Source: an uncultured bacterium (GTDB lineage Bacteria; Bacillota_I; Bacilli_A; RFN20; CAG-826). From it: a stretch of 33,638 nucleotides of DNA. Below, one piece after another: positions 1,921-31,063 of the stretch. The position numbers and the translations under genes were made by a program. Position 1 is the first letter of the stretch. Each line of letters begins with the position of its first letter. The DNA lies in NCBI GenBank assembly GCA_949285665.1, contig CASDYC010000001.1:291738-325375 (forward strand), given 5' to 3'. The notes under the pieces were generated by a model. It worked only from the letters and a program-made list of their open reading frames with translations. It was not told where the DNA came from and did no database searches.

Positions 1921-3810
1921 TTATAATATATCAATTTTTGTAATTTTAGAAATATATTCCAATAAATTTTTATCTTCACAATAAATGTAGCAACCTTTTT
2001 GTCCTCTAGTTAGCAAGACTTTATAAGTATTTTTTATAATTTTATCTGCAATTAATAAATAATTTGCTTTATGTTTCAATCCTTTTAACGATTGATCAGT
2101 TCTTGCTCTTTTGCTTGGATCTGTAACAACGTGATTGTTTTCGTATCGTAAATCTTTTCCAATAATTACACCAACATAGTCAAATTCTAATCCTTGCGAT
2201 GTATGAATACAGCCAACTTGATCAAAACTATCATCATCAATAGCCCATGTTGAAGTATTACTAAAGTTCCATTTGGCTTTAAAATTATCTTCTAATTTAA
2301 TGTCATATTCATCCGAATCATTTTTATCTTTTGTTATCCAATCATAACAATAACCAGCTAATATACGTGCTTTATTATTCCTGTTTTTCTTTTTTAGTTC
2401 TTCTTTTAATTTTGTCGGGCTACTAAAAAGTTTTAAATCGTAATCTAAATCAAAATCATAATTTGCAGTTTTTCTTATTTCTAATAAATTATCTATGAAA
2501 GCTAAATATCCATCTGAACCATTACATCTAAATTGACTTTTCAAATTTAAACTATCATCATATATAACTTTGCTTCTTTCAATATTTGCCCATCTTTTAA
2601 TTTCTTCAACACTTCCAATATCTGATGAAGTAACAATTTGATCTTCGTCTATAAAAAATACAGATACTCTTGATGCATGTATAATTTCTTTTATTTGATT
2701 TTCACCTAAATTTTTAAATATACCACTTTTTGAATTTAACCTGTGTGCTTCATCACAAACTATACAATCAAATTCATTTAATCTAGCATTAATAAAAGAA
2801 CCAGAACCAATAAAAAGACTTTTTAAATATCTTTTTTTATATTGATTTTCTATTAACTTTTTAAAGTAAACTTCTCTTGGTGAACTATTTTTTGAAGTAT
2901 AAACAGCAGATTTACCACTCGAAATCAAATCTTTTAAAAGTTGAATAGCTATTATACTTTTTCCTGTACCTGGTCCACCTTTAATAATTATTGTATATTT
3001 ACCATTTACATTATTGACATCTTTAGATAATTTTAAACTTTTATTAACAAGTGATTTTACAATCTCATAAGCAACCTTTTGTTCATCAATTAAATAAAAT
3101 TCTTGTTTTCCTTTAAATATATTACTTATTGCATCTTGCAACGATTTAGAAGGTTTTAATTTTCCGTTTTCAATTTGCATTAAAATATTAATATTATCTT
3201 CTTTTTTTATAAATTTTTTAATAAAATTTGTTAATTTAATTTCATCTCGACCTAAAAAAATAGGAGCTAAAGTTATTGCTTCTTTATAAAATTCATTGTC
3301 TATATGACTACGATTTGCTTCTTTATAATTATGTAAATACGCACAACTTTGAATTTTTATGTTATTTTTTTGAATTGTTTCATTAAAATTTTCAATGACT
3401 TTTGCATATGAATAAGCTTGATATGAAGGATGACAAACAAATCTATTAGAACCTCCAGTATAGGCATAAACAACATCAGGTCTATCAGTTTGTTTACTAT
3501 CTTCCCATTGTTTTAATTCAACTACGACAACATTGTTATTATTATATTCATCGCAGCCAGAAATTAAAAAATCTACTCTTTTAGAAGTTAATGGAATTTG
3601 ATATTCAATTGCAACTTTACATAAATCAGAAATTTCATTGTCATTTAAAACATCTCTCATAAATCGAAGAGAATTCATCCACGCTCTATACTCTCCTTCA
3701 TGACTATGTGGTATATGATGATTATTCATTTCATTTTCAATTACATCAGCAATTATACCTTGTCTTACATCATCAATGAAACCTCCTTTTGTATTTTGAT
3801 AAACAATCAT
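1921..3810 (-). CDS. PD-(D/E)XK nuclease fused to SF1-like helicase (DUF2075 type)
   Basis: This 629-residue protein has two parts. The N-terminal part (about 1-200) has a PD-(D/E)XK signature: Asp80 in KRVDFLISG, then Glu98-x-Lys100 in VVVELKQW. The C-terminal part is an SF1-like/DUF2075 motor: Walker A GGPGTGKS 278-285, Walker B CDEAHR 352-357, motif III FFIDEDQ 385-391, QFRCN about 426, HTSQGLEFD 536-544, and a motif VI-like LLTRGQKG about 599-606. Predicted role: ATP-driven DNA or RNA unwinding coupled to cleavage. The start overlaps the MazG-like gene stop by 4 nt (ATGA), so the two are translationally coupled. Location in a decayed island with an IS remnant fits a mobile defence or plasmid-type cassette. 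That role is inference; the motifs are visible. Confidence 0.8.
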   Translation of the reverse strand: MIVYQNTKGGFIDDVRQGIIADVIENEMNNHHIPHSHEGEYRAWMNSLRFMRDVLNDNEISDLCKVAIEYQIPLTSKRVDFLISGCDEYNNNNVVVVELKQWEDSKQTDRPDVVYAYTGGSNRFVCHPSYQAYSYAKVIENFNETIQKNNIKIQSCAYLHNYKEANRSHIDNEFYKEAITLAPIFLGRDEIKLTNFIKKFIKKEDNINILMQIENGKLKPSKSLQDAISNIFKGKQEFYLIDEQKVAYEIVKSLVNKSLKLSKDVNNVNGKYTIIIKGGPGTGKSIIAIQLLKDLISSGKSAVYTSKNSSPREVYFKKLIENQYKKRYLKSLFIGSGSFINARLNEFDCIVCDEAHRLNSKSGIFKNLGENQIKEIIHASRVSVFFIDEDQIVTSSDIGSVEEIKRWANIERSKVIYDDSLNLKSQFRCNGSDGYLAFIDNLLEIRKTANYDFDLDYDLKLFSSPTKLKEELKKKNRNNKARILAGYCYDWITKDKNDSDEYDIKLEDNFKAKWNFSNTSTWAIDDDSFDQVGCIHTSQGLEFDYVGVIIGKDLRYENNHVVTDPSKRARTDQSLKGLKHKANYLLIADKIIKNTYKVLLTRGQKGCYIYCEDKNLLEYISKITKIDIL

Positions 3811-4124
3811 TTAAATTCGTTCTCCTTATCAAGTGGATATTTTTCGGAATTCTTTTTTAATTTTTCATTTATTATTTCATCAATATTTAAATGATATTTT
3901 TCAGCAATTTGAACAGCATAAATAAAAACATCTGCAAGTTCTTCTTTTATTTTATTTAAACGATCAAGACGATCCAAATCAACATTATTCCATTGATAAA
4001 TTTCTAAAAGTTCAGAAGATTCTAAAGACAATGATAAAGCTAAATCTTTACCATTGTGGTATTTTTCCCAATTTCTATCTTTATTAAATTTATTTATTTT
4101 TTGAATTGTTTTATCTGAAAGCAT
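3807..4124 (-). CDS. MazG-like nucleotide pyrophosphohydrolase
   Basis: This 105-residue all-alpha protein is the usual single-domain MazG size. The metal-binding pattern ExxE...ExxD is present: E35-x2-E38 (LESSELLEIYQW) and E62-x2-D65 (EELADVFIY). The family hydrolyses (d)NTPs or nucleotide alarmones to the monophosphate plus PPi, in the cytosol with Mg2+. It is the first gene of the operon and overlaps the nuclease-helicase by 4 nt. The conserved coupling suggests it supplies or removes a nucleotide signal for that partner (inference). A good Shine-Dalgarno is not evident: AAGG lies only 2 nt before the ATG, so start choice is less certain. Confidence 0.85.
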   Translation of the reverse strand: MLSDKTIQKINKFNKDRNWEKYHNGKDLALSLSLESSELLEIYQWNNVDLDRLDRLNKIKEELADVFIYAVQIAEKYHLNIDEIINEKLKKNSEKYPLDKENEFK

Positions 4125-5565: not shown

Positions 5566-7422
5566 TCAATCCATATAAGGATCTAGATCTACCCTATATT
5601 CAGTAGAATGCATTTTCTCATCAATGTTCATTCCTAAATAAATATCAGCAATATTAGATTTTTCTACAAAAGCTATACGTTTATAACGCTTACCTAAAGT
5701 ACTAACGCAATAGATTGAGAACAAAAGATTTTCACTATAATCTCCATCAAGACATTCATTAGTTAAAGCTATTAAATCTAATCTTATATTTATGCTCGCT
5801 TCATCGTATCCATGAATTAACAAAACGCATTTGTTCTTGTAAATCGGATTTTTTAACTTTTCGAATAATTGATTTTTATCGTAGCTATAAGCATCTGTTT
5901 GAATTAATTCTAATCTCTTTTCTTTGCACCATTTTAAAACTATAGGATCAACTGTAAACTCATGAAGCCCTTCAATATAAACATTGTTCCCTTTCGGTGA
6001 AACATTATTTGATGTTTGTCCCTCTCTTTTTCCTCTATATGCTGTCTTTCTTTCATAAGCGAAATTTAGTCCATCAATAATATTTTGCCTATAAGTTTCT
6101 TTATTCATATTTATGATATTCTTTTTGATAATCCATTTTCCGTTTTTAGAGAAAATTCCATTAACAAATTCTCCTTCATAAATAGATCCATTTTTTAACC
6201 ATATGCATCCATTACCATGAGGAACACCATCTTTTATATCCCCTTCATATTTTATTCCCAAAGCATCAAACAGCATGCCATATCCTGTTGGTTGAAAAAA
6301 ACGTAGACCCTGAACTCCAATATAATTTGATTTAAAATTTCCTTCATATATACATGCATTAAGATAATAAGTCTTATCTCCAAAGTGCCCGTCACGGACA
6401 TATGTTATACGGCCTTGAAATTGTTTTTTCTCGGGTAAAAAGTCACCATCTATAAAAAAATGACTATCAAAATCTTGTGTTTCAAAGTCTAACAAAAATG
6501 AATATTGTTGACCAACACAATACTCTCCGTCTTTAAAGAATCCATCAACGAATATGGATCCTGTTGAAAATTCATCTACCGAAGTCAAGTACAAGCAACC
6601 TAATCTATTTGGCTTATATTCATTTTTGTGATTTTTAAATTCCCTTACAAATTCACCTTCGTATTTTTCTATATTGTAAGAATTATAATCACCTGAGTAG
6701 CTATATATAATTGCCTTATCGTTTTCATCATCATTTTCATAAGGATCGGCTTGGATTCTACTTATAGACATGGAATTTTTTTGTTCAAACTTCCATTTCA
6801 TCTTTAAATCATAAATTTCTTCAAATTCGCTTAAAGAATTAAATTTTATACCATCCGCTCCATAGACTATGCATTCTTCTGCAGGGATACCATCAGAAAA
6901 ATAACCTTCATATTTATTAACTCCATTATGAAAAATACCTTTTCCATTAATTTTTCCGTCAAGAAATTCTCCGGAATACTTTCCTTCAGCATTATGAAAA
7001 CTTTTATCTATACAACTTATTTTATTAACATATTCATAGGAAACTCGATTAATTACGCCATATAAGGTTCCTTTACCATGAGGCACTTCATTTTTAAATT
7101 CTCCAACGTACTTATTGCCATCTTGATACCAAAATGTTCCTGAGCAATCTACTCTATGGTCATTAGAAAATTCACCTTCATATTTATCACCATTAAAATA
7201 CCAATAGATACCATGTCCTGATTTTAAATCATTAACAAAGTTACCCTGATACTTATCTCCATTAGAATACCACATTGTGCCAAAGCCATTACGTAAGCCA
7301 TACTCAAAGTGGCCTTCATACTTAGATCCATCATCATAATAAATAATGCCATCGCCTACACTAGTAAAAGCTTTGGAACCTTTTCCTACAATCACTTCTT
7401 TTCCATCACATATTATTTTCAT
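5566..7422 (-). CDS. MORN-repeat protein with degenerate ATPase-like C-terminal domain
   Basis: This 618-residue protein has about 9-11 MORN repeats (YEGxFxxGxxxGxG pattern) at residues 35-185, 254-270 and 355-430. Clear units include YEGHFEYGLRNGFG, YEGEFVNGIFSKNG and YEGDIKDGVPHGNG. Residues about 481-618 align by eye with the downstream ATPase: YIEGLHEFTVDPIVLKW against PIEGLTGSGKSSIVLEW. Walker A is lost (GSGKSS replaced by EFTVDP), and the Walker B position is VLLIHGYD with His instead of Asp. So this is a pseudo-ATPase fused to MORN repeats. MORN repeats bind membranes or proteins in known cases. There is no signal peptide or TM segment. Codon use appears less AT-rich than the core genes. 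An AGGAG lies 13 nt upstream of the ATG, a long gap. Function unknown. Confidence 0.75.
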   Translation of the reverse strand: MKIICDGKEVIVGKGSKAFTSVGDGIIYYDDGSKYEGHFEYGLRNGFGTMWYSNGDKYQGNFVNDLKSGHGIYWYFNGDKYEGEFSNDHRVDCSGTFWYQDGNKYVGEFKNEVPHGKGTLYGVINRVSYEYVNKISCIDKSFHNAEGKYSGEFLDGKINGKGIFHNGVNKYEGYFSDGIPAEECIVYGADGIKFNSLSEFEEIYDLKMKWKFEQKNSMSISRIQADPYENDDENDKAIIYSYSGDYNSYNIEKYEGEFVREFKNHKNEYKPNRLGCLYLTSVDEFSTGSIFVDGFFKDGEYCVGQQYSFLLDFETQDFDSHFFIDGDFLPEKKQFQGRITYVRDGHFGDKTYYLNACIYEGNFKSNYIGVQGLRFFQPTGYGMLFDALGIKYEGDIKDGVPHGNGCIWLKNGSIYEGEFVNGIFSKNGKWIIKKNIINMNKETYRQNIIDGLNFAYERKTAYRGKREGQTSNNVSPKGNNVYIEGLHEFTVDPIVLKWCKEKRLELIQTDAYSYDKNQLFEKLKNPIYKNKCVLLIHGYDEASINIRLDLIALTNECLDGDYSENLLFSIYCVSTLGKRYKRIAFVEKSNIADIYLGMNIDEKMHSTEYRVDLDPYMD

Positions 7423-22967: not shown

Positions 22968-25364
22968 TTATCTAACAACAATATTGATAATTTTATTTTT
23001 AATATAAATAACTTTAACAATATTTTTCCCTTCTATTTGTTTTTTAACAGAATCTAATGCAAAAGCTTTTTCTTTTACACTTTCCTCATCTTCATCACTT
23101 GAAATTTCAATTGTTCCTCTTAACTTACCCAAAACTTGGACAGCGATTGTTTTCTTATCTAATTTTATTTTTTCTTCATCGTGTTTTGGCCAAGGTTGAT
23201 AAGTTAATAATTCATTTGAAAATTGACTCCAAATTTCTTCTCCGACAAATGGACAAATACATGAAAACATTTTTACAAAATCTTTCATATATTCTTCATA
23301 AATTTCATCTTGTTTATAAACTTCATTTATAAAAATCATCATTTGAGAAATTGCAGTATTAAACTGTAAATTCTCAAAATCTTCAGTTACTTTTTTAACA
23401 GTAAAATTATAAATATAATCAAGTTTATGATTATTTTCATTTTTAAATTTACTTCTCATATTTTCATCAAAATAGACTCTATAAACTCGATCAATAAATC
23501 TATGAGCGCCTTCTAAACCAGTATTTGACCAAGGAAGACTAGCTTCTAGTGGTCCCATAAACATTTCATATAATCTTAAAGTATCAGCTCCATATTGTTC
23601 TACAATATCATCTGGATTAATAACATTACCTCTTGATTTTGACATTTTTTCACCATTGGAGCCTAAAATTATTCCTTGATGGAATAATTTTTTAAATGGT
23701 TCTTTACAAGAAACTACTCCAATATCATATAAGAATTTATGCCAAAATCTTGCATATAATAAATGTAAGACAGCGTGTTCTGCTCCTCCAATATATAAAT
23801 CAACTGGAAGCCAATGATCTAGTAATTTTTTATCTCCAAGAGTTGTTTCATTATGTGGATCAATATATCTAATATAATACCAACAAGATCCAGCCCATTG
23901 AGGCATTGTATTTGTTTCTCTTTTACCTTTGACTCCATTTATTTCAACATTTACCCAATCTTTGTCATTTGCAAGAGGAGATTCTCCAGTGCCAGATGGT
24001 TTATATTCTTTTAATTCTGGTAAAACTAATGGTAATTCATTTTCTTTTAGACAATAAGTTGTTCCATTATCTAAAAATACAATTGGAATTGGTTCACCCC
24101 AGTATCTTTGACGAGAAAATAGCCAATCTCTAATTTTATAGTTTACTTTTTTATTACCTAGTTTAAGCTCTTCTAGTTTATTAATTACAGCAATTTTTGC
24201 ATCTTCATTATGAAGTCCATTAATAAAATCAGAATTAATATGAACACCATCTCCAGTAAATGCTTCTTTTGAAATATCAGATTCTATAACTTTAATTATT
24301 TCAAGATTATGTTTTTTTGCAAATTCATAATCTCTTGTATCATGAGCTGGAACAGCCATTACAGCACCACTTCCATAACTTGCAAGTACATAATCAGCAA
24401 TATAAATTGGAACCTTTTTTTTATTTATTGGATTAATTGCATAACTTCCAGTAAATACACCCGTTTTTTCTTTGCTAGTTGAGGTTCTTTCAATATCAGT
24501 TTTATTTTTAATACTATTAATATATTCTTCAACTTTTGTTATATTTTCTTTTGTAGTTAATTTTTTTACTAAATCATGTTCTGGCGCAAGACAGACATAA
24601 GTACAACCAAATAAAGTATCAGCTCTTGTTGTAAATACTTTAAAGCTTTCATCCATTCCAACAACTTTAAAAATAATCTCTGCACCAACGGATTTTCCAA
24701 TCCAGTTTTTTTGCATTTCAATTGTTGATTTTGGCCAATCTAAACTGTCAATATTTTCTAAAAGTTTATCAGCATAATCAGTTATTTTTAAAACCCATTG
24801 TTTCATTGGTTTTTTTATAACTGGATAACCGCCTCTTTCACTTTTTCCATCAATTACTTCTTCATTTGCTAAAACAGTTCCAAGTTCTAGACAAAAATTA
24901 ACATCTCGATAATCATCGTATGCTAAATTGTTTTCATATAATTTAGTAAATATCCATTGTGTCCATTTATAATATTTTGGATCACAAGTTTTAATTTCTT
25001 TATCCCAGTCATAAGAAAAGCCTAATAAATCAATTTGTCGTTTAAAATTTTCAATATTTTTATCAGTAAAAATTAAAGGATTTTGATTCATTTTTATAGC
25101 ATATTGTTCAGCTGGAAGTCCAAAAGCATCCCAACCCATTGGATGAAGTACATTAAATCCTTGCATTCTTTTCATTCTAGCAATTATATCACTAGCAGTA
25201 TATCCTTCTGGATGTCCAACGTGTAAGCCTTGTCCACTTGGATATGGAAACATATCTAAAATATAATATTTTGGTTTTGAAAAATCATGGACATCACAAT
25301 AAAAAGGTTTTTTATCTTTATAAACTTGTCTCCATTTATTTTCAATACTTTTATGATCAAACAT
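22968..25364 (-). CDS. leuS: leucyl-tRNA synthetase
   Basis: This 798-residue class I LeuRS of bacterial type has HIGH at 48-51 (HVGH), the editing CP1 domain ([31 protein letters not shown], with the editing Asp), and KMSKS at 573-577. [12 protein letters not shown] and the C-terminal [11 protein letters not shown] are also typical. Under T-box control (see 25385-25575), so it is induced when tRNA-Leu is uncharged. ATG 25364 has AAGGAG 7 nt upstream. Confidence 0.97.
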
Positions 25365-25384: not shown

Positions 25385-25575
25385 CTTTTTAAATATAAAA
25401 GCGTCCATAAGGACGCTATTGCGTGTTACCACCTTATTTCATCTTTAAATTTTATAAGATACACTCATTAATATTTTTAACGCAAACTTACGGCTAGTTT
25501 ATAGCTGAGACTTAATAATTAATATAGTATTTTTCACCAAACAATACTTCTCTTTAATATTAATTTATTAATTAA
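25385..25575 (-). ncRNA. T-box leader of leuS (leucine)
   Basis: The leader reads from about 25575 down. It has an AGAGAAGTA start, a stem AGTATT/AATACT, a candidate specifier TTA just before AGTCTC, and then the T-box AAGGTGGTAACACGC (25437-25421). The T-box is followed by the terminator hairpin GCGTCC/GGACGC (25416-25401) with TTTTAT. T-boxes sense uncharged tRNA. A UUA (leucine) specifier is my reading; CUC two bases later is the alternative. Stem I looks short. Confidence 0.85.
25397..25416 (-). terminator. T-box terminator hairpin
   Basis: GCGTCC-TTAT-GGACGC with TTTT after it, in the leuS leader. The GCG next to the T-box motif can pair with it to form the antiterminator. Confidence 0.85.
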
Positions 25576-25591
25576 TGCATCTAGCAAAATA

Positions 25592-25604: not shown

Positions 25605-28600
25605 TTAATCAACTTCGACATCTTTTGCGTATAATCTTACGCAACTTGAGTTTTTACTATGTAAAACAACAAGAGTTTCATCAACAAGTTCGGAAATATC
25701 AGTCAATTTTTCGCTTGGTGCTGAAACAATAGCTTGAAGATTAAATTTTCTTAAAAGTTTAATTGATTCTTGAATTCTTCCTCGATCCATTTTAGAGAAT
25801 GCTTCATCAAAAATAATTAATCTAATTGTATTTGAAAGTTCACCTTTTTCTTTTGTTCGATAAAGTTGGGCAAAACTTGCAAGAACAGAAATATAGAATG
25901 GAGTTTGAGTTTCACCGCCAGATTTCTTTTTAATCATCTTAGAAAGTCTTTGTTTAACTCCTTCTTTATTTGTAACGATTAAATCAAAATCAAGATAGCT
26001 TCGATAATCAACAAATTTTTCAAAATTACTTAAGAAATCTTGGCTTGGAGTTTGACTTGTTAAAGTGATTTGCGAGAATAAATCATTCATTACATCTTGA
26101 TATTTTGTAATAAATTCATTTTCATCTTCATCTTGTGATAAAATTAAATCATCTTTAAACATATCATAATATCGTTTATAAACTGGATTTGGTTTAACAG
26201 TAAATTGATATGAGTCATTTCCAAATGTTGATGCACTTAAAGCTTCGTTTAATTCGTTAATTTGGTCTTCGACCATCTCAATTTGATTTCTAATTTTAGC
26301 AATAAAGTCATCTTTAAATTGTTTTGTTGCTTTATTATAAGCATCAGCAATTTTTTCTTCATATTCTGGAAGTTTGACATCTCTTAAATCAATAAGTTCG
26401 TTATCAAACTCAGTATTTTCCTCACTATCACAATTTAAAGATAAATGATAATCAGAAACGTATTCTTTTCTTAATTTTTTAATTTGATTTAAGACATTAG
26501 CACTTAAATATTGGCCTCTTCCAATTTCAACTTGATATTTTTTCATAATTTCCAAAACTTTATTATCGTTTTCTGCAAGTTCTCTTTCAAGAGTTGGAAG
26601 ACCTTCTGTTTTTACAAATTCAAAATCATAATTTTGATTTAAGTGTTCTTCTTTTTCTTTAATATTTTTAGTTTCTTCTTTAATCTTATCTTCTTTTAAA
26701 GTTTTAATTGAAGTTGTTAAATTACCTTTTTCAATATTTAAATTATCAGCATCAGTTTGTAATTGTTTTAAATCCTCATCTAAATTATTGATACGTTTTT
26801 CAATTGAATCAATTTCAACTACATCATGTTTTGATAATTCTTCTTCAATATAATTTAAAGAAGATTTTAAACCAGTTAATTCATGAGATTGTTTAATATC
26901 AGAAAGCATTGAATTAATTTCATTTGTATTAATAATTTCTAATGAATTAGCTTTATTAATAATTTGATATAAACTTCGATATTGATTAATTAAATTAACT
27001 AAATTGTCAATTTCAGTTTGTTTTTCTAAAATTAATTTTGGTCCAACATTTCTTCCGATAAATGAATTTGCATAAAGTCGAGGATTAATTTTAGAAAGTG
27101 AGAAATTTCTATAAATATCGCAATCTCTTGTTATACCATTTTGAGATTCTCGAGCTTGTTGAACATTTTCACATTTTTTAATTGTTCCAAGTAAGAAATT
27201 AATATAACTTCTAGCACCTTTATGGTCGGTTATAATTTCAGTTGCAAGAGAGTTTGGGGCTGCTTTAAAGTCTCTTTCAATTAATTTTTCTTGGTCAACT
27301 AGGCTTGTTTGATAAAATCTATTTTCCTCAAGTAAGTGTTTTAAAATTTCATATGCATCAAAATAATATCTTGGCTCAACAAATAAATGGAACTTTTGAT
27401 TAAAAATATATCCTTCAATTGCATTTGTCCAAGACTTATCAGAGATATCAATTAAATCCGCTAAAATCTCAACATCGATTTGTTTATTATATTTTAAAGT
27501 AAGACGATTTTGTAATTCATTTTTAATTCTATAAAACGTTGGATCATACGCCTTGACTCCACGTTTTAAGGAATCAAAATCTAATCTTAAACTTGTCAAT
27601 TTGCTTTCAAGATTTCTTATACTTCTTGCAAAGGAAACACAAAATGCACTAACTAATTGTTTAAATGAGAATAATGATTCTCTCCAAGAATTTAAATCTT
27701 CATCAGAGACAAATGTTAATCCTTTATCAAGAGTATCTAAGATAACTTTTGATTTTTTAATAACGACATCTAATATATTTTTAATTTCTAAAATATCACT
27801 GACTCTATCTTCATCTAAAATATCTACATTAATATTATCAAAGTTTTCTTTTAAAACTTTAGAGATTTCAAAGTAATTATTAGCATAATTATGAAGTTTG
27901 CTTTGAACATCATTTAAATCTTTTTCAATAACTTTAATCTTATCATTTAATGATTTCTTTTCTTCTAATAATTCACTTGTCATCTTATAAGTGTCATTAT
28001 TACTTTGATCAGCGATAAGTTGATATTTTTTTCTTGTTAATTCATTTTTATTGGCTTCAATATCTTCAAGTTCAGAATCAATTTCAACTAAACGATGCTT
28101 ATATGAATCAATTTGTCGATAATATGAAGCAACTCTATCACTTGCAATTTGATATTCTAATTTTTCAATAATATAAGAACATAATTTAACGCCAGATTTA
28201 ACATTTTTAAAGTTTTCATATAAATCTTCAATCTCTTCAAGTTTTTCAATTCTTTTTCTAAGTTTTGAAGCTTCAGCTTCTAAATCTTTATATTGAAGAA
28301 TTGTCTCTTGCATAGCTTGAAGTTCAATGTTTGCTTGAGGATCACAAACATATTCGGTAATAAATGTTGTAATATCAGTAATTGGAGTAAAACTTGTTGC
28401 TTTTTTTAATAATTGGAAATATTTATCTTTTAATCCACCAAATTTTTTCTTTAAAGCTTCTTGATAAGCTTTATTTGAATCAAGGAATGTATATTTATTA
28501 GGATATTCTTGTTTAAAATATTCTAAAAGTTGTTTATATGACATTGGTGTTTTATTTAAGATGAATTCATTATCTGGAATTTTATCATTTAATATAAAGA

Positions 28601-28979
28601 AACGATGTTCTTCACTTCCATCATCAAAAATATCAAAGACACAACCCATTGTAAAATATTCTTGATTGACATCATCAAAAAATTCGACAGCTAAATAAGA
28701 TGAAAATCTTCCTTCTCTTAAATATCTAAATCCACCATCTTCGGTATCACCAAGTTCACCTTTTAAATATCCTTTTAGAGTTCTATTTGATTTATCCATG
28801 GCGGCTTTATTAAAAAATCTACCACTTGTATCACCTAATAAAATAACTAAAAGTCCATCAAGGAGAGTTGATTTACCACTAGCATTTCTTCCGGTTAAAA
28901 AGACAATTGGTCTTAAATCAATTGTTTCATTCCAAAAATAATGCCAGTTAATTATTTTAAATTTTGTTGCACTTTTCAT
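25605..28979 (-). CDS. jetC: SMC-like ATPase JetC/MksB
   Basis: This 1124-residue protein has an SMC/MukB architecture: N-terminal Walker A GRNASGKST 30-38, long coiled-coil (about 230-470 and 640-950) around a hinge-like middle (about 480-640), then signature KKSGGETQ (1018-1025) and Walker B IIFDEAFSKMD (1055-1065) with catalytic Glu1059. Length and partner order match Wadjet JetC / condensin MksB. It would drive ATP-dependent DNA loop extrusion. It has a strong SD (AAGGAGG, 9 nt from ATG) inside the jetB 3' end, and its ATG shares one base with the jetB stop. Confidence 0.88.
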   Translation of the reverse strand: MKSATKFKIINWHYFWNETIDLRPIVFLTGRNASGKSTLLDGLLVILLGDTSGRFFNKAAMDKSNRTLKGYLKGELGDTEDGGFRYLREGRFSSYLAVEFFDDVNQEYFTMGCVFDIFDDGSEEHRFFILNDKIPDNEFILNKTPMSYKQLLEYFKQEYPNKYTFLDSNKAYQEALKKKFGGLKDKYFQLLKKATSFTPITDITTFITEYVCDPQANIELQAMQETILQYKDLEAEASKLRKRIEKLEEIEDLYENFKNVKSGVKLCSYIIEKLEYQIASDRVASYYRQIDSYKHRLVEIDSELEDIEANKNELTRKKYQLIADQSNNDTYKMTSELLEEKKSLNDKIKVIEKDLNDVQSKLHNYANNYFEISKVLKENFDNINVDILDEDRVSDILEIKNILDVVIKKSKVILDTLDKGLTFVSDEDLNSWRESLFSFKQLVSAFCVSFARSIRNLESKLTSLRLDFDSLKRGVKAYDPTFYRIKNELQNRLTLKYNKQIDVEILADLIDISDKSWTNAIEGYIFNQKFHLFVEPRYYFDAYEILKHLLEENRFYQTSLVDQEKLIERDFKAAPNSLATEIITDHKGARSYINFLLGTIKKCENVQQARESQNGITRDCDIYRNFSLSKINPRLYANSFIGRNVGPKLILEKQTEIDNLVNLINQYRSLYQIINKANSLEIINTNEINSMLSDIKQSHELTGLKSSLNYIEEELSKHDVVEIDSIEKRINNLDEDLKQLQTDADNLNIEKGNLTTSIKTLKEDKIKEETKNIKEKEEHLNQNYDFEFVKTEGLPTLERELAENDNKVLEIMKKYQVEIGRGQYLSANVLNQIKKLRKEYVSDYHLSLNCDSEENTEFDNELIDLRDVKLPEYEEKIADAYNKATKQFKDDFIAKIRNQIEMVEDQINELNEALSASTFGNDSYQFTVKPNPVYKRYYDMFKDDLILSQDEDENEFITKYQDVMNDLFSQITLTSQTPSQDFLSNFEKFVDYRSYLDFDLIVTNKEGVKQRLSKMIKKKSGGETQTPFYISVLASFAQLYRTKEKGELSNTIRLIIFDEAFSKMDRGRIQESIKLLRKFNLQAIVSAPSEKLTDISELVDETLVVLHSKNSSCVRLYAKDVEVD

Positions 28980-29632
28980 TAAAAGTCACCTCCTTGAAAT
29001 TTAGTTAGGTCAACTTTTTCTTTTTCTTCATTAATTCTTGAAATGGCATCAGCCATAGCTTGAATTTTATTATTATCAATTGCATAAACTATACTTGGTA
29101 AAATATAAAATGAAACATTTCCTTCATCATATGAACCAGATACTTTATTAATAATATTTCTATTAGCTAATAATCTTAAAGATTTAGCAATTGATCGACC
29201 GGTTAATCTTTTTCCTTGGAAAGGAACATTAAATTCCAACATTGTTTTAATTAAAGCGCTTGTTGTGATATAAATTCCCGCATTTGCTTGAGAGCTATCA
29301 GTTTTCTCGCTTTCATAAATTAATCTTAAAACATATAAAACTAGGGATGTTTCTCTATCTAATTTAAATCGATTTTCAGAATAGATATTATTTAGAGAAA
29401 TTACTCCTAGTAAAATATCTTTTTCAATTGAATAACCAATATAATTTAAATAATCATTAATCAAATCAAATTTTCTTTCGGCAAATCGATAATAAGGATT
29501 TAATTTAACAATTTTTTCTTTTGTATCAAAAACATCTCTAACTATAAATGAATGGGTTAATAAATGATTTATGACATTTGCAAAATTAGATTTATCACTA
29601 TTTGTTAAACTTAAAAATTCTTCTTCAAACAT
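28979..29632 (-). CDS. jetB: JetB/MksE-like (DUF4194-type) winged-helix subunit
   Basis: This 217-residue protein is of a size, position and pattern that fit the kite-like winged-helix subunit of JetABC/MksEFB (LTNSDKSNFANVINHLLTH, YRFAERKFDLINDYLNYIGY, ALIKTMLEFNVPFQGKRLTG, a Ser-Leu-Arg-Leu helix, then a C-terminal strand pair). Partner of the SMC-like ATPase and the kleisin. It follows jetA by 6 nt and overlaps jetC by 1 nt. Confidence 0.8.
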   Translation of the reverse strand: MFEEEFLSLTNSDKSNFANVINHLLTHSFIVRDVFDTKEKIVKLNPYYRFAERKFDLINDYLNYIGYSIEKDILLGVISLNNIYSENRFKLDRETSLVLYVLRLIYESEKTDSSQANAGIYITTSALIKTMLEFNVPFQGKRLTGRSIAKSLRLLANRNIINKVSGSYDEGNVSFYILPSIVYAIDNNKIQAMADAISRINEEKEKVDLTKFQGGDF

Positions 29633-29638
29633 TATTAT

Positions 29639-31063
29639 TTAATCTCCTTTCTTTTTTCTTTTAAATATCATCTTAGGAAGGATATATCCTTGGGAGTGGA
29701 CTTTTTCACTACTTGAGTAATCTACTTCATAAAATGATTCAGGTTCATCTCTTTTAATAGTTGCAAGAATTAATAAAATTAATGCATCAAAATTTACTAG
29801 AGGTATTTCTTCAATTTTAATTTCATCTTTATCTTGAAATACTTCTTGCATAAATTTAAAGACCATTTCATCAGTAAACATGCCATTTACACTATCTAAA
29901 AATGATTGCATTGCATAATCATCTAATTCATTAAATCCCATAATTTCTAGTGGGACTTCACTATGAATAAATTTTCTTAAAAATGGTAATGTAACTGAAT
30001 CAGAATCAATAAAACCATTATCATAAAAATAAATTGAATCTTGCATTGATGATAAAATATCTCGCATTATTTTATAATTTGATTTATATTTTCCAATACC
30101 AACAAGTATTGTCTCTAAATTACCTTTAACCGATTTATCAGTATTATTAAGATATAAAATCTTATTAGCACTTGCTTTGGTGTAATCTCTATGAGATTTA
30201 TCAATTTGATCAATCATCTTAGATAATTGAGTCAACATATCGGTTATATAATTAATTTTTGTAATAATATCACTTTCAATTTCTTGAGGAGTTAAAGATT
30301 TTGTTTGATAAATCATGGCTTGTTTTATTAATAATTTTTTTGTATCTTCATCTTTTAGCCATGATTCTAAAATATTAATAATTGGTCTTTTAAATCTTGT
30401 AACACTATCAAAAGTCTTTAATGGATGATAGAGTCGATCAGATATTAATTCTTTATAATTATCAAAATAAGAATGTAAAACTTCATTTGATGTATAAAGT
30501 TTTGCTAATCTACTTTGATAAATTTTAATACTATGAGATAAAGTAATTAAATCAACTCTTAATTTTTTTGTATTTTCATAAGCTCTTAATAGCGATGGAT
30601 ACATAAATTCATCTTTATTTTGATTTTCTAAATAAAGTTCTGAATACATGGTATGCACTAAAGATGAATATCCAGCACTTGATTCATTAACAACATTAAA
30701 AATTGATTCTAAACAAATAATTGAATAATTTGGTAAGACAATAAATTCATCATAAGTTTCTGGATCCATTTCAAGTTCAATCCAACCAGTATCTTCTAAT
30801 CTTCTTAAAACTAGATTAGCTTTTGATGATACACTTGTTGAAATTTCTTCATTATCAAATTCATTTTCTTCTTCAATTGATAAAGTTTCAATTTCATTAC
30901 TTAATTTCTCTTTTAAAGAACGCAAAAATTCATCCTTTTTTACGTACATATCATTATCATTAACTAAGTTATATAATAACAATAAACTCGAGGCATAAAC
31001 TTGTTTATTTTTTCCAGTTAATATTGAGTAAAATTTTTCTGGTAATATATCAAATAATTTCAT
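29639..31063 (-). CDS. jetA: JetA/MksF-like kleisin subunit
   Basis: This 474-residue protein is the first gene of the operon, with the JetA/MksF size. N-terminal winged-helix-like region about 1-110 (LRRLEDTGWIELEMDPETYD), a helical middle with long helices (about 140-330) and a C-terminal domain (about 400-474), as in kleisins that bridge the SMC heads. No SD is seen before ATG 31063. A TATAAT lies only 14 nt upstream, so the mRNA may be nearly leaderless. The rest of the operon follows without gaps. Confidence 0.8.
   Translation of the reverse strand: MKLFDILPEKFYSILTGKNKQVYASSLLLLYNLVNDNDMYVKKDEFLRSLKEKLSNEIETLSIEEENEFDNEEISTSVSSKANLVLRRLEDTGWIELEMDPETYDEFIVLPNYSIICLESIFNVVNESSAGYSSLVHTMYSELYLENQNKDEFMYPSLLRAYENTKKLRVDLITLSHSIKIYQSRLAKLYTSNEVLHSYFDNYKELISDRLYHPLKTFDSVTRFKRPIINILESWLKDEDTKKLLIKQAMIYQTKSLTPQEIESDIITKINYITDMLTQLSKMIDQIDKSHRDYTKASANKILYLNNTDKSVKGNLETILVGIGKYKSNYKIMRDILSSMQDSIYFYDNGFIDSDSVTLPFLRKFIHSEVPLEIMGFNELDDYAMQSFLDSVNGMFTDEMVFKFMQEVFQDKDEIKIEEIPLVNFDALILLILATIKRDEPESFYEVDYSSSEKVHSQGYILPKMIFKRKKKGD

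What the first reader, a model, noticed from the sequence alone, without database searches (positions are those of the whole stretch)
25605..31063. JetABC (MksFEB-like) operon without JetD
The SMC-like ATPase, winged-helix and kleisin genes are contiguous and coupled, but no TOPRIM nuclease gene (jetD/mksG) follows; the leuS promoter starts directly after jetC. Without the nuclease the complex would condense or move DNA rather than cut plasmids. Its place among core genes suggests a fixed chromosomal role.
Basis: partly seen in the sequence, partly recalled or inferred. Interest (0 to 1): 0.6.

Follow-up and report, generated by a model that had tools for sequence, protein, structure and literature searches.

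The report
Wadjet-type JetABC without its nuclease
A three-gene DNA-looping motor that normally belongs to a plasmid-cutting defence system is kept here without its cutting enzyme, in bacteria that seem to lack the usual chromosome-organising machine, so it may have taken over that housekeeping job.

Summary
jetA (31063-29639), jetB (29632-28979) and jetC (28979-25605) form a tight minus-strand operon with all ATPase motifs intact. No jetD follows: a T-box leader for leuS begins 21 nt after jetC. No JetD was found elsewhere in the 1.03-Mb, 98% complete genome. This is not a degenerate defence locus. In the order, the JetD-less copy forms one taxonomy-congruent clade, sits among core genes, is under purifying selection, and is separate from sporadic true JetABCD operons. 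The same 94 genomes contain no recognisable Smc, ScpA or ScpB (0 of 94 each over cut-off). Across 247 class genomes, JetA without JetD occurs with ScpA in 2 of 56; JetA with JetD in 8 of 11. Best explanation: a nuclease-less, Wadjet-I-derived condensin standing in for Smc-ScpAB, as MukBEF does in enterobacteria (confidence 0.62). Against it: in its own family 36 of 56 genomes lack JetC and still show no Smc-ScpAB, so it is not indispensable; function is untested. JetD-less Wadjet-group operons are already in print (PMC7617805); the vertical, Smc-excluding, apparently repeated pattern in Bacilli is what I did not find described.

The parts
29639..31063 (-). jetA (mksF/mukF-type kleisin), 474 aa
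   Evidence: PF18982 280 bits; PADLOC JetA1 378 bits; AlphaFold2 model mean pLDDT 80.9, Foldseek best hits MukF chains 9gm7/9gm9/7nz2 and JetA 8q72
28979..29632 (-). jetB (mksE/mukE-type KITE), 217 aa
   Evidence: DUF4194 61 bits; PADLOC JetB1 213 bits
25605..28979 (-). jetC (SMC-like ATPase), 1124 aa
   Evidence: PADLOC JetC1 PDLC00519 1101 bits over residues 1-1120; phmmer to solved JetC chains 9qxt and 8as8, E 1.5e-15 and 4.7e-14
28866..28892 (-). jetC Walker A (residues 30-38, GRNASGKST)
   Evidence: G30, G35, K36 and T38 invariant in 29 order JetC; motif name recalled
25911..25922 (-). jetC ABC signature SGGE (residues 1020-1023)
   Evidence: invariant in 29 order JetC; motif name recalled
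25803..25808 (-). jetC Walker B D1058-E1059 (IIFDEAFSKMD)
   Evidence: invariant in 29 order JetC; PF13558 SbcC_Walker_B 90 bits
25406..25584 (-). T-box leader of leuS, occupying the place where jetD would start
   Evidence: RF00230 66.3 bits, E 2.3e-14 in 401 bases, below gathering score 93; terminator-like hairpin 25417-25400
22968..25364 (-). leuS (leucyl-tRNA synthetase), next gene downstream; not part of the complex
   Evidence: PF13603 229 bits, PF00133 175 bits
31152..31592 (+). divergent small membrane-type protein, conserved neighbour (cluster c5, 19 loci); not in the operon
   Evidence: only weak Pfam matches

Best explanation
It is a nuclease-less, Wadjet-type-I-derived SMC complex that works as a chromosomal condensin, standing in for the missing Smc-ScpAB, by analogy with MukBEF in enterobacteria. 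Inferred mechanism: two JetC dimers, each closed by JetA kleisin and JetB KITE and coupled through the JetA N-termini, load on chromosomal DNA and use ATP to extrude loops, compacting and separating sister chromosomes. With no JetD to cut when the motors stall, the complex stalls or turns over without cleaving DNA. Shown here: operon, subunit families, intact ATPase motifs, no JetD found, no Smc/ScpA/ScpB found, taxonomy-congruent clade, purifying selection. Inferred: complex formation, loop extrusion, chromosomal substrate, functional replacement.
For: No JetD in the genome; JetD_C in 8 of 94 order genomes, most of them in separate JetABCD operons or their remains. Smc TIGR02168 over cut-off 0 of 94 (10 of 14 controls over), ScpA 0 of 94 (9 of 14), ScpB 0 of 94 (9 of 14). 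JetA in 37 of 38 order genomes outside the window's family. Class: JetA without JetD has ScpA in 2 of 56 genomes; JetA with JetD in 8 of 11 (Fisher p 1e-6, not phylogeny-corrected). JetC tree: 49 core order copies one clade (SH-aLRT 100) with f3, f5 and f8 (100 each), f2 (100) and f4 (84) each a clade and the 16 core f1 copies one clade (97), while JetD-linked JetC are scattered. Core neighbours look like housekeeping genes: leuS, glycogen genes, rpe, rpmB, plsC, ftsK-type. dN/dS 0.003-0.24 in 31 usable of 33 comparisons. Motifs invariant in 29 JetC. JetA model resembles MukF and JetA. Precedents: MksBEF acts on the P. aeruginosa chromosome (PMC7485682, passages); MukBEF lacks JetD and segregates the chromosome (PMC7617805, passages).
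Against: 36 of 56 genomes of the window's own family have no JetC, and none of the 56 has Smc, ScpA or ScpB over cut-off, so these lineages do without either. 74 of 247 class genomes have neither JetA nor ScpA. In another family (f14) a JetD-less copy coexists with ScpA (G141; also G132 and G149, which have JetD too). No subunit change marks the JetD-less form: JetB N-termini match those of clostridial JetD+ systems, and no column is conserved at 90% to different residues in the two groups. ParB is not detected in the window's genome. No experiment.
Confidence: 0.62

Rival explanations
1. The complex still acts against plasmids or phage DNA without JetD: it extrudes and silences or mis-segregates small circles, or recruits an unrelated nuclease encoded elsewhere.
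For: It derives from Wadjet. The JetB N-terminus is unchanged from that of clostridial JetD+ relatives. The window encodes other candidate nucleic-acid enzymes, such as a Schlafen-type helicase and a weak NERD-domain protein.
Against: The clade follows taxonomy and sits in core-gene surroundings, unlike the scattered JetD+ copies; no one gene follows jetC across the families; nearly mutually exclusive with ScpA, which defence does not predict.
Confidence: 0.2
2. A narrower chromosomal role, such as repair or ori/ter handling, in lineages that had already lost Smc-ScpAB and need no condensin; not a true replacement.
For: More than half of the genomes sampled from the window's family lack both Smc-ScpAB and JetC. 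Within the family core JetABC co-occurs with ParB (15 of 16 against 21 of 40; p 0.005; 13 of 14 against 18 of 28, p 0.07, at 90% completeness; not phylogeny-corrected).
Against: Near-universal outside the family (37 of 38).
Confidence: 0.13
3. A vestigial defence system that lost its nuclease and is decaying.
For: Decaying JetABCD operons do occur in the order: G025 (jetA and jetD broken) and G086 (JetD end fused to a recombinase ORF).
Against: Core copies are mostly intact, ATPase motifs invariant, dN/dS far below 1, clade spans the order's families.
Confidence: 0.05

Closest known systems
Wadjet type I (JetABCD / MksBEFG / EptABCD)
   Same: Gene order jetA-jetB-jetC, subunit families, motifs; in the 149-row tree the order's copies lie next to clostridial JetABCD operons.
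   Different: No JetD TOPRIM nuclease, hence no known means of cutting plasmids; taxonomy-congruent and in core-gene context instead of sporadic.
MukBEF (Escherichia coli)
   Same: Wadjet-group condensin without MksG/JetD that stands in for Smc-ScpAB (PMC7617805 passages; PMC10586767 sections 3 and 7). The JetA model's best Foldseek hits are MukF chains.
   Different: Sequence is JetC1/JetA1, not MukB/MukF (MukB Pfam model 18 bits, below cut-off 23). ParB is present in many order genomes; its absence beside MukBEF is recalled.
Pseudomonas aeruginosa MksBEF
   Same: Mks condensin with a chromosomal role (PMC7485682, passages).
   Different: Coexists with Smc-ScpAB there; here Smc-ScpAB is not found.
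Smc-ScpAB
   Same: Presumed role only.
   Different: None of the three proteins is found over cut-off in 94 order genomes.

Membership tests
Wadjet type I defence system | JetA, JetB and JetC homologues in one operon | tested here: met
   Pfam and PADLOC matches, coupled ORFs
Wadjet type I defence system | JetD TOPRIM nuclease | tested here: not met
   PF09983 no match in the genome; own JetD profile at E<=10 gives only 12 strong JetD in 101 loci, none at core copies
Wadjet type I defence system | Plasmid restriction | not testable with these tools
   needs an experiment
MukBEF/MksBEF (Wadjet-group) condensin without nuclease | kleisin-KITE-SMC operon with intact Walker A, signature and Walker B | tested here: met
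MukBEF/MksBEF (Wadjet-group) condensin without nuclease | No MksG/JetD | tested here: met
MukBEF/MksBEF (Wadjet-group) condensin without nuclease | Replaces Smc-ScpAB in its host | tested here: inconclusive
   Smc, ScpA and ScpB over cut-off in 0 of 94 order genomes, but 36 of 56 genomes of the family lack JetC too
MukBEF/MksBEF (Wadjet-group) condensin without nuclease | Acts in chromosome organisation or segregation | not testable with these tools
   needs genetics or Hi-C
Smc-ScpAB | Smc, ScpA and ScpB homology | tested here: not met
   JetC gives only 11 bits to PF02463 (cut-off 40)

The most novel reading that the evidence does not exclude
In several separate lineages of Bacilli (the window's order; families f16, f10 and f26-f28) a plasmid-defence Wadjet system lost its nuclease and became the vertically inherited chromosomal condensin while Smc-ScpAB disappeared: repeated domestication of a defence motor, the route that has been only speculated for MukBEF. 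Some sister genera then lost every recognisable SMC condensin.
Probability: 0.45. Interest if true: 0.82.

Novelty: new variant of a known kind. Interest (0 to 1): 0.62.

Why it matters
A review speculates that MukBEF-type condensins arose from a defence system (PMC10586767, section 7). These Gram-positive lineages offer independent cases, with JetD+ relatives close by in the tree, true JetABCD operons in some of the same genomes, and genera that have lost the complex. That makes the step from plasmid cutter to chromosome organiser testable. It also warns that defence-annotation tools may call these core genes a partial Wadjet system (PADLOC JetC1, 1101 bits).

Tried and rejected
JetB N-terminus as a mark of JetD loss: the order's core JetB lack the N-terminal extension of class JetD+ JetB, but clostridial JetD+ JetB lack it too, so rejected. 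The 'IFDR motif' named in PMC10586767 was not recognised by eye in either group.

In-place replacement of scpAB: in four f8 genomes jetC is followed, after a small ORF, by a DUF2953-like ORF (name recalled; Pfam gave no family for it) and a YtfJ spore-protein gene, which I recall beside scpB in clostridia. In 20 ScpA loci of the class no such neighbours were found, so unsupported.

Residues conserved differently with and without JetD: none at 90% in both groups.

One origin for the order's JetD-less copies: the best tree nests clostridial JetD+ rows among them, but a single clade is not rejected (AU p 0.2; 31 order rows against 29 others, thinned from the full set; L075, L083, L097, L245 and L268 left out). 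The number of JetD losses in the class is therefore approximate; the 149-row tree has long branches that meet.

Solved structures: phmmer found none for JetA or JetB, so JetA was modelled instead.

Literature: ten searches listed no paper that I recognised as reporting JetD-less Wadjet replacing Smc-ScpAB in Bacilli. PMC7617805 (passages and section 52) states that several Wadjet-group members lack JetD; its Data S1 may hold these operons and was not read. Also seen: passages of PMC10123090, PMC10512200, PMC10197239 and PMC12287153 and section 17 of the last. The library has no bioRxiv collection and misses most subscription papers.

Full report
1. The observation. JetA matches PF18982 at 280 bits, JetB matches DUF4194 at 61 bits, and JetC matches PADLOC JetC1 at 1101 bits over its whole length. 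jetA and jetB are 6 nt apart; the stop of jetB overlaps the start of jetC. JetC has a complete ATPase: Walker A, SGGE signature and Walker B residues are invariant in 29 JetC of the order. The JetA model (mean pLDDT 80.9, pTM 0.51) has MukF chains and JetA 8q72 as its best Foldseek hits, E 3.5e-5 to 1e-3, with low TM-scores (0.19-0.34 by query length), which I put down to a flexible kleisin.

2. No room and no gene for JetD. A T-box leader (66.3 bits, below Rfam's gathering score) starts 21 nt after jetC and leads into leuS. PF09983 finds no JetD in the 1,030,441-base, 98% complete assembly. In 101 loci, a JetD profile built here finds, at E<=10, only 12 proteins, all strong JetD. In the five order loci with an intact JetABCD operon jetD overlaps jetC by 4-29 nt; none of the other 51 order loci with a listed jetC neighbour has JetD there (three of the 51, L062, L083 and L097, are a split copy or copies outside the core clade).

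3. Relatives. Among 94 order genomes (the window's own included) JetA is in 58: 37 of 38 outside the window's family (f1) and 21 of 56 inside it. JetC is in 57: 37 of 38 and 20 of 56; the one exception outside f1 (G061) has jetA and jetB on a short contig that ends there. In the 279 order genomes held, JetA is in 121, 68 of them in f1 by my count of the rows (family totals are not given there). JetD_C is in 8 of 94, 7 over cut-off. Four genomes (G005, G025, G035, G087) carry a core JetABC and, elsewhere, a JetABCD operon (that of G025 is broken); G027 and G037 have JetABCD and no core copy.

4. Smc-ScpAB is missing. Over the curated cut-offs: Smc 0 of 94, ScpA 0 of 94, ScpB 0 of 94, with 10, 9 and 9 of 14 control genomes over cut-off. 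The Smc search scored at most six candidates per genome and gave weak matches up to 55 bits against a cut-off of 567 (84 of 94 genomes at E<=0.001; the two best lie in JetD-linked JetC). ScpA and ScpB, with one weak match each below cut-off, are independent checks.

5. The same pattern across the class. In 247 class genomes (counted) ScpA is over cut-off in 116, JetA in 67, JetD in 18 (16 over cut-off). JetA without JetD: 56 genomes, 2 with ScpA (G141, G195). JetA with JetD: 11 genomes, 8 with ScpA. Neither JetA nor ScpA: 74. Fisher p is 1e-15 (against all others) and 1e-6 (against JetD+), but genomes are related, so the p-values overstate the evidence. Families f10, f16, f26, f27 and f28, and the window's order, have JetD-less JetABC and no listed ScpA over cut-off; f14 has ScpA plus JetD+ and JetD-less copies. 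One f27 genome (G235) has both a JetD-less and a JetABCD operon.

6. History. In a tree of 96 JetC the 49 core order copies form one clade (SH-aLRT 100); f2, f3, f5 and f8 (100 each) and f4 (84) are each a clade and the 16 core f1 copies are one clade (97). f16 (14 rows), f26-f28 (12) and f10 (3) are separate clades (100 each). The 12 JetD-linked JetC need six changes on the tree and pair across orders (G087 with G235), as mobile defence genes do; several such joins are long branches. A scan of named genomes (best 80 of 576 relatives) gave JetD next to jetC in 46 of 80. The 34 without are 29 loci that I assign to the order (by contig identity with the fetched genomes, gene order or place in the tree; for instance Candidatus Onthovivens merdipullorum and RUG131) and five others: a Treponema, a Peptococcaceae and a Lachnoclostridium locus without JetD, and two whose contigs end soon after jetC. 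In the 149-row tree the order's copies lie with clostridial JetD+ systems; a single clade of order copies is not rejected (AU p 0.2). In that tree f5 takes two changes and f4 has support 62.

7. Selection and context. dN/dS in 11 pairs and three genes is 0.003 to 0.24 (31 of 33 usable; one failed for lack of a jetB ORF, one saturated; many dS exceed 1; two of the 11 pairs are from families f28 and f16). Core neighbours look like housekeeping genes: leuS, glycogen genes, rpe, rpmB, plsC, an ftsK-type gene (only leuS, rpe and rpmB were confirmed by Pfam, the rest is my reading of the sequences). In f1 core JetABC and ParB go together: 15 of 16 against 21 of 40 (p 0.005), or 13 of 14 against 18 of 28 at 90% completeness (p 0.07). 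The window's own genome is the exception without a ParB match.

8. How it probably works. By homology to JetABC and MukBEF it should be a dimer of SMC motors that extrudes DNA loops. Without JetD the known defence output is gone. With no Smc-ScpAB found in the same cells, the simplest role is chromosome compaction and segregation. P. aeruginosa MksBEF shows that an Mks complex can do this (PMC7485682, passages); MukBEF shows that a JetD-less Wadjet-group complex can be the condensin of a cell (PMC7617805, passages; PMC10586767, sections 3 and 7).

9. What speaks against it. Much of f1 has neither complex, so the cell can live without. Some class genomes keep both. No sequence feature found here separates JetD-less from JetD+ subunits. 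Nothing here is experimental.

10. Novelty. That several Wadjet-group operons lack JetD, and that MukBEF may descend from Wadjet, is in print. I did not find (ten searches, listed under Tried and rejected) a report of JetD-less type I JetABC as a vertically inherited, Smc-excluding complex in Bacilli. I call it a new variant of a known kind.

Noticed in passing
window 25406-25584 (-): T-box leader of leuS with terminator-like hairpin; 66.3 bits, below Rfam's gathering score, so default annotation misses it.
   Followed up: yes
L035 343-1983 (G086): A 546-aa ORF joins a serine-recombinase-like sequence (my reading) to the C-terminal part of JetD: a jetD apparently interrupted by a mobile element.
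   Followed up: no
L036 (G025:C32): Decaying JetABCD copy (split jetA, truncated jetD) in a genome that also holds an intact JetD-less core copy.
   Followed up: partly
L228, L230, L232, L237, L248, L267 downstream of jetC: In a gut clostridial clade jetABC are intact but jetD is broken into two to four ORFs; early nuclease loss, frameshifts or assembly errors.
   Followed up: no
L190 and L191 (G132, G141): JetD-less jetABC at a conserved locus in family f14, whose genomes keep ScpA: a possible intermediate state.
   Followed up: partly
class sample: 74 of 247 genomes have neither JetA nor ScpA; their condensin, if any, is unknown.
   Followed up: no
L083 (G023) and L097 (G046): Family f1 JetC without JetD that group with JetD+ copies on long branches, outside the core clade; possibly nuclease-less relics.
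   Followed up: no
L054, L055, L058, L059: In family f8 a YtfJ spore-protein gene lies a few genes downstream of jetC.
   Followed up: partly
L040, L046 and several f3/f5 loci downstream of jetC: An uncharacterised membrane-type protein of about 300-400 aa (weak DUF3137 in one) often follows jetC, directly or after one small gene.
   Followed up: partly
window 1921-4124 (-): Schlafen group 3 helicase-domain protein next to a MazG-like protein; may be a defence pair.
   Followed up: no
window 5566-7422 (-): 618-aa protein with MORN repeats.
   Followed up: no
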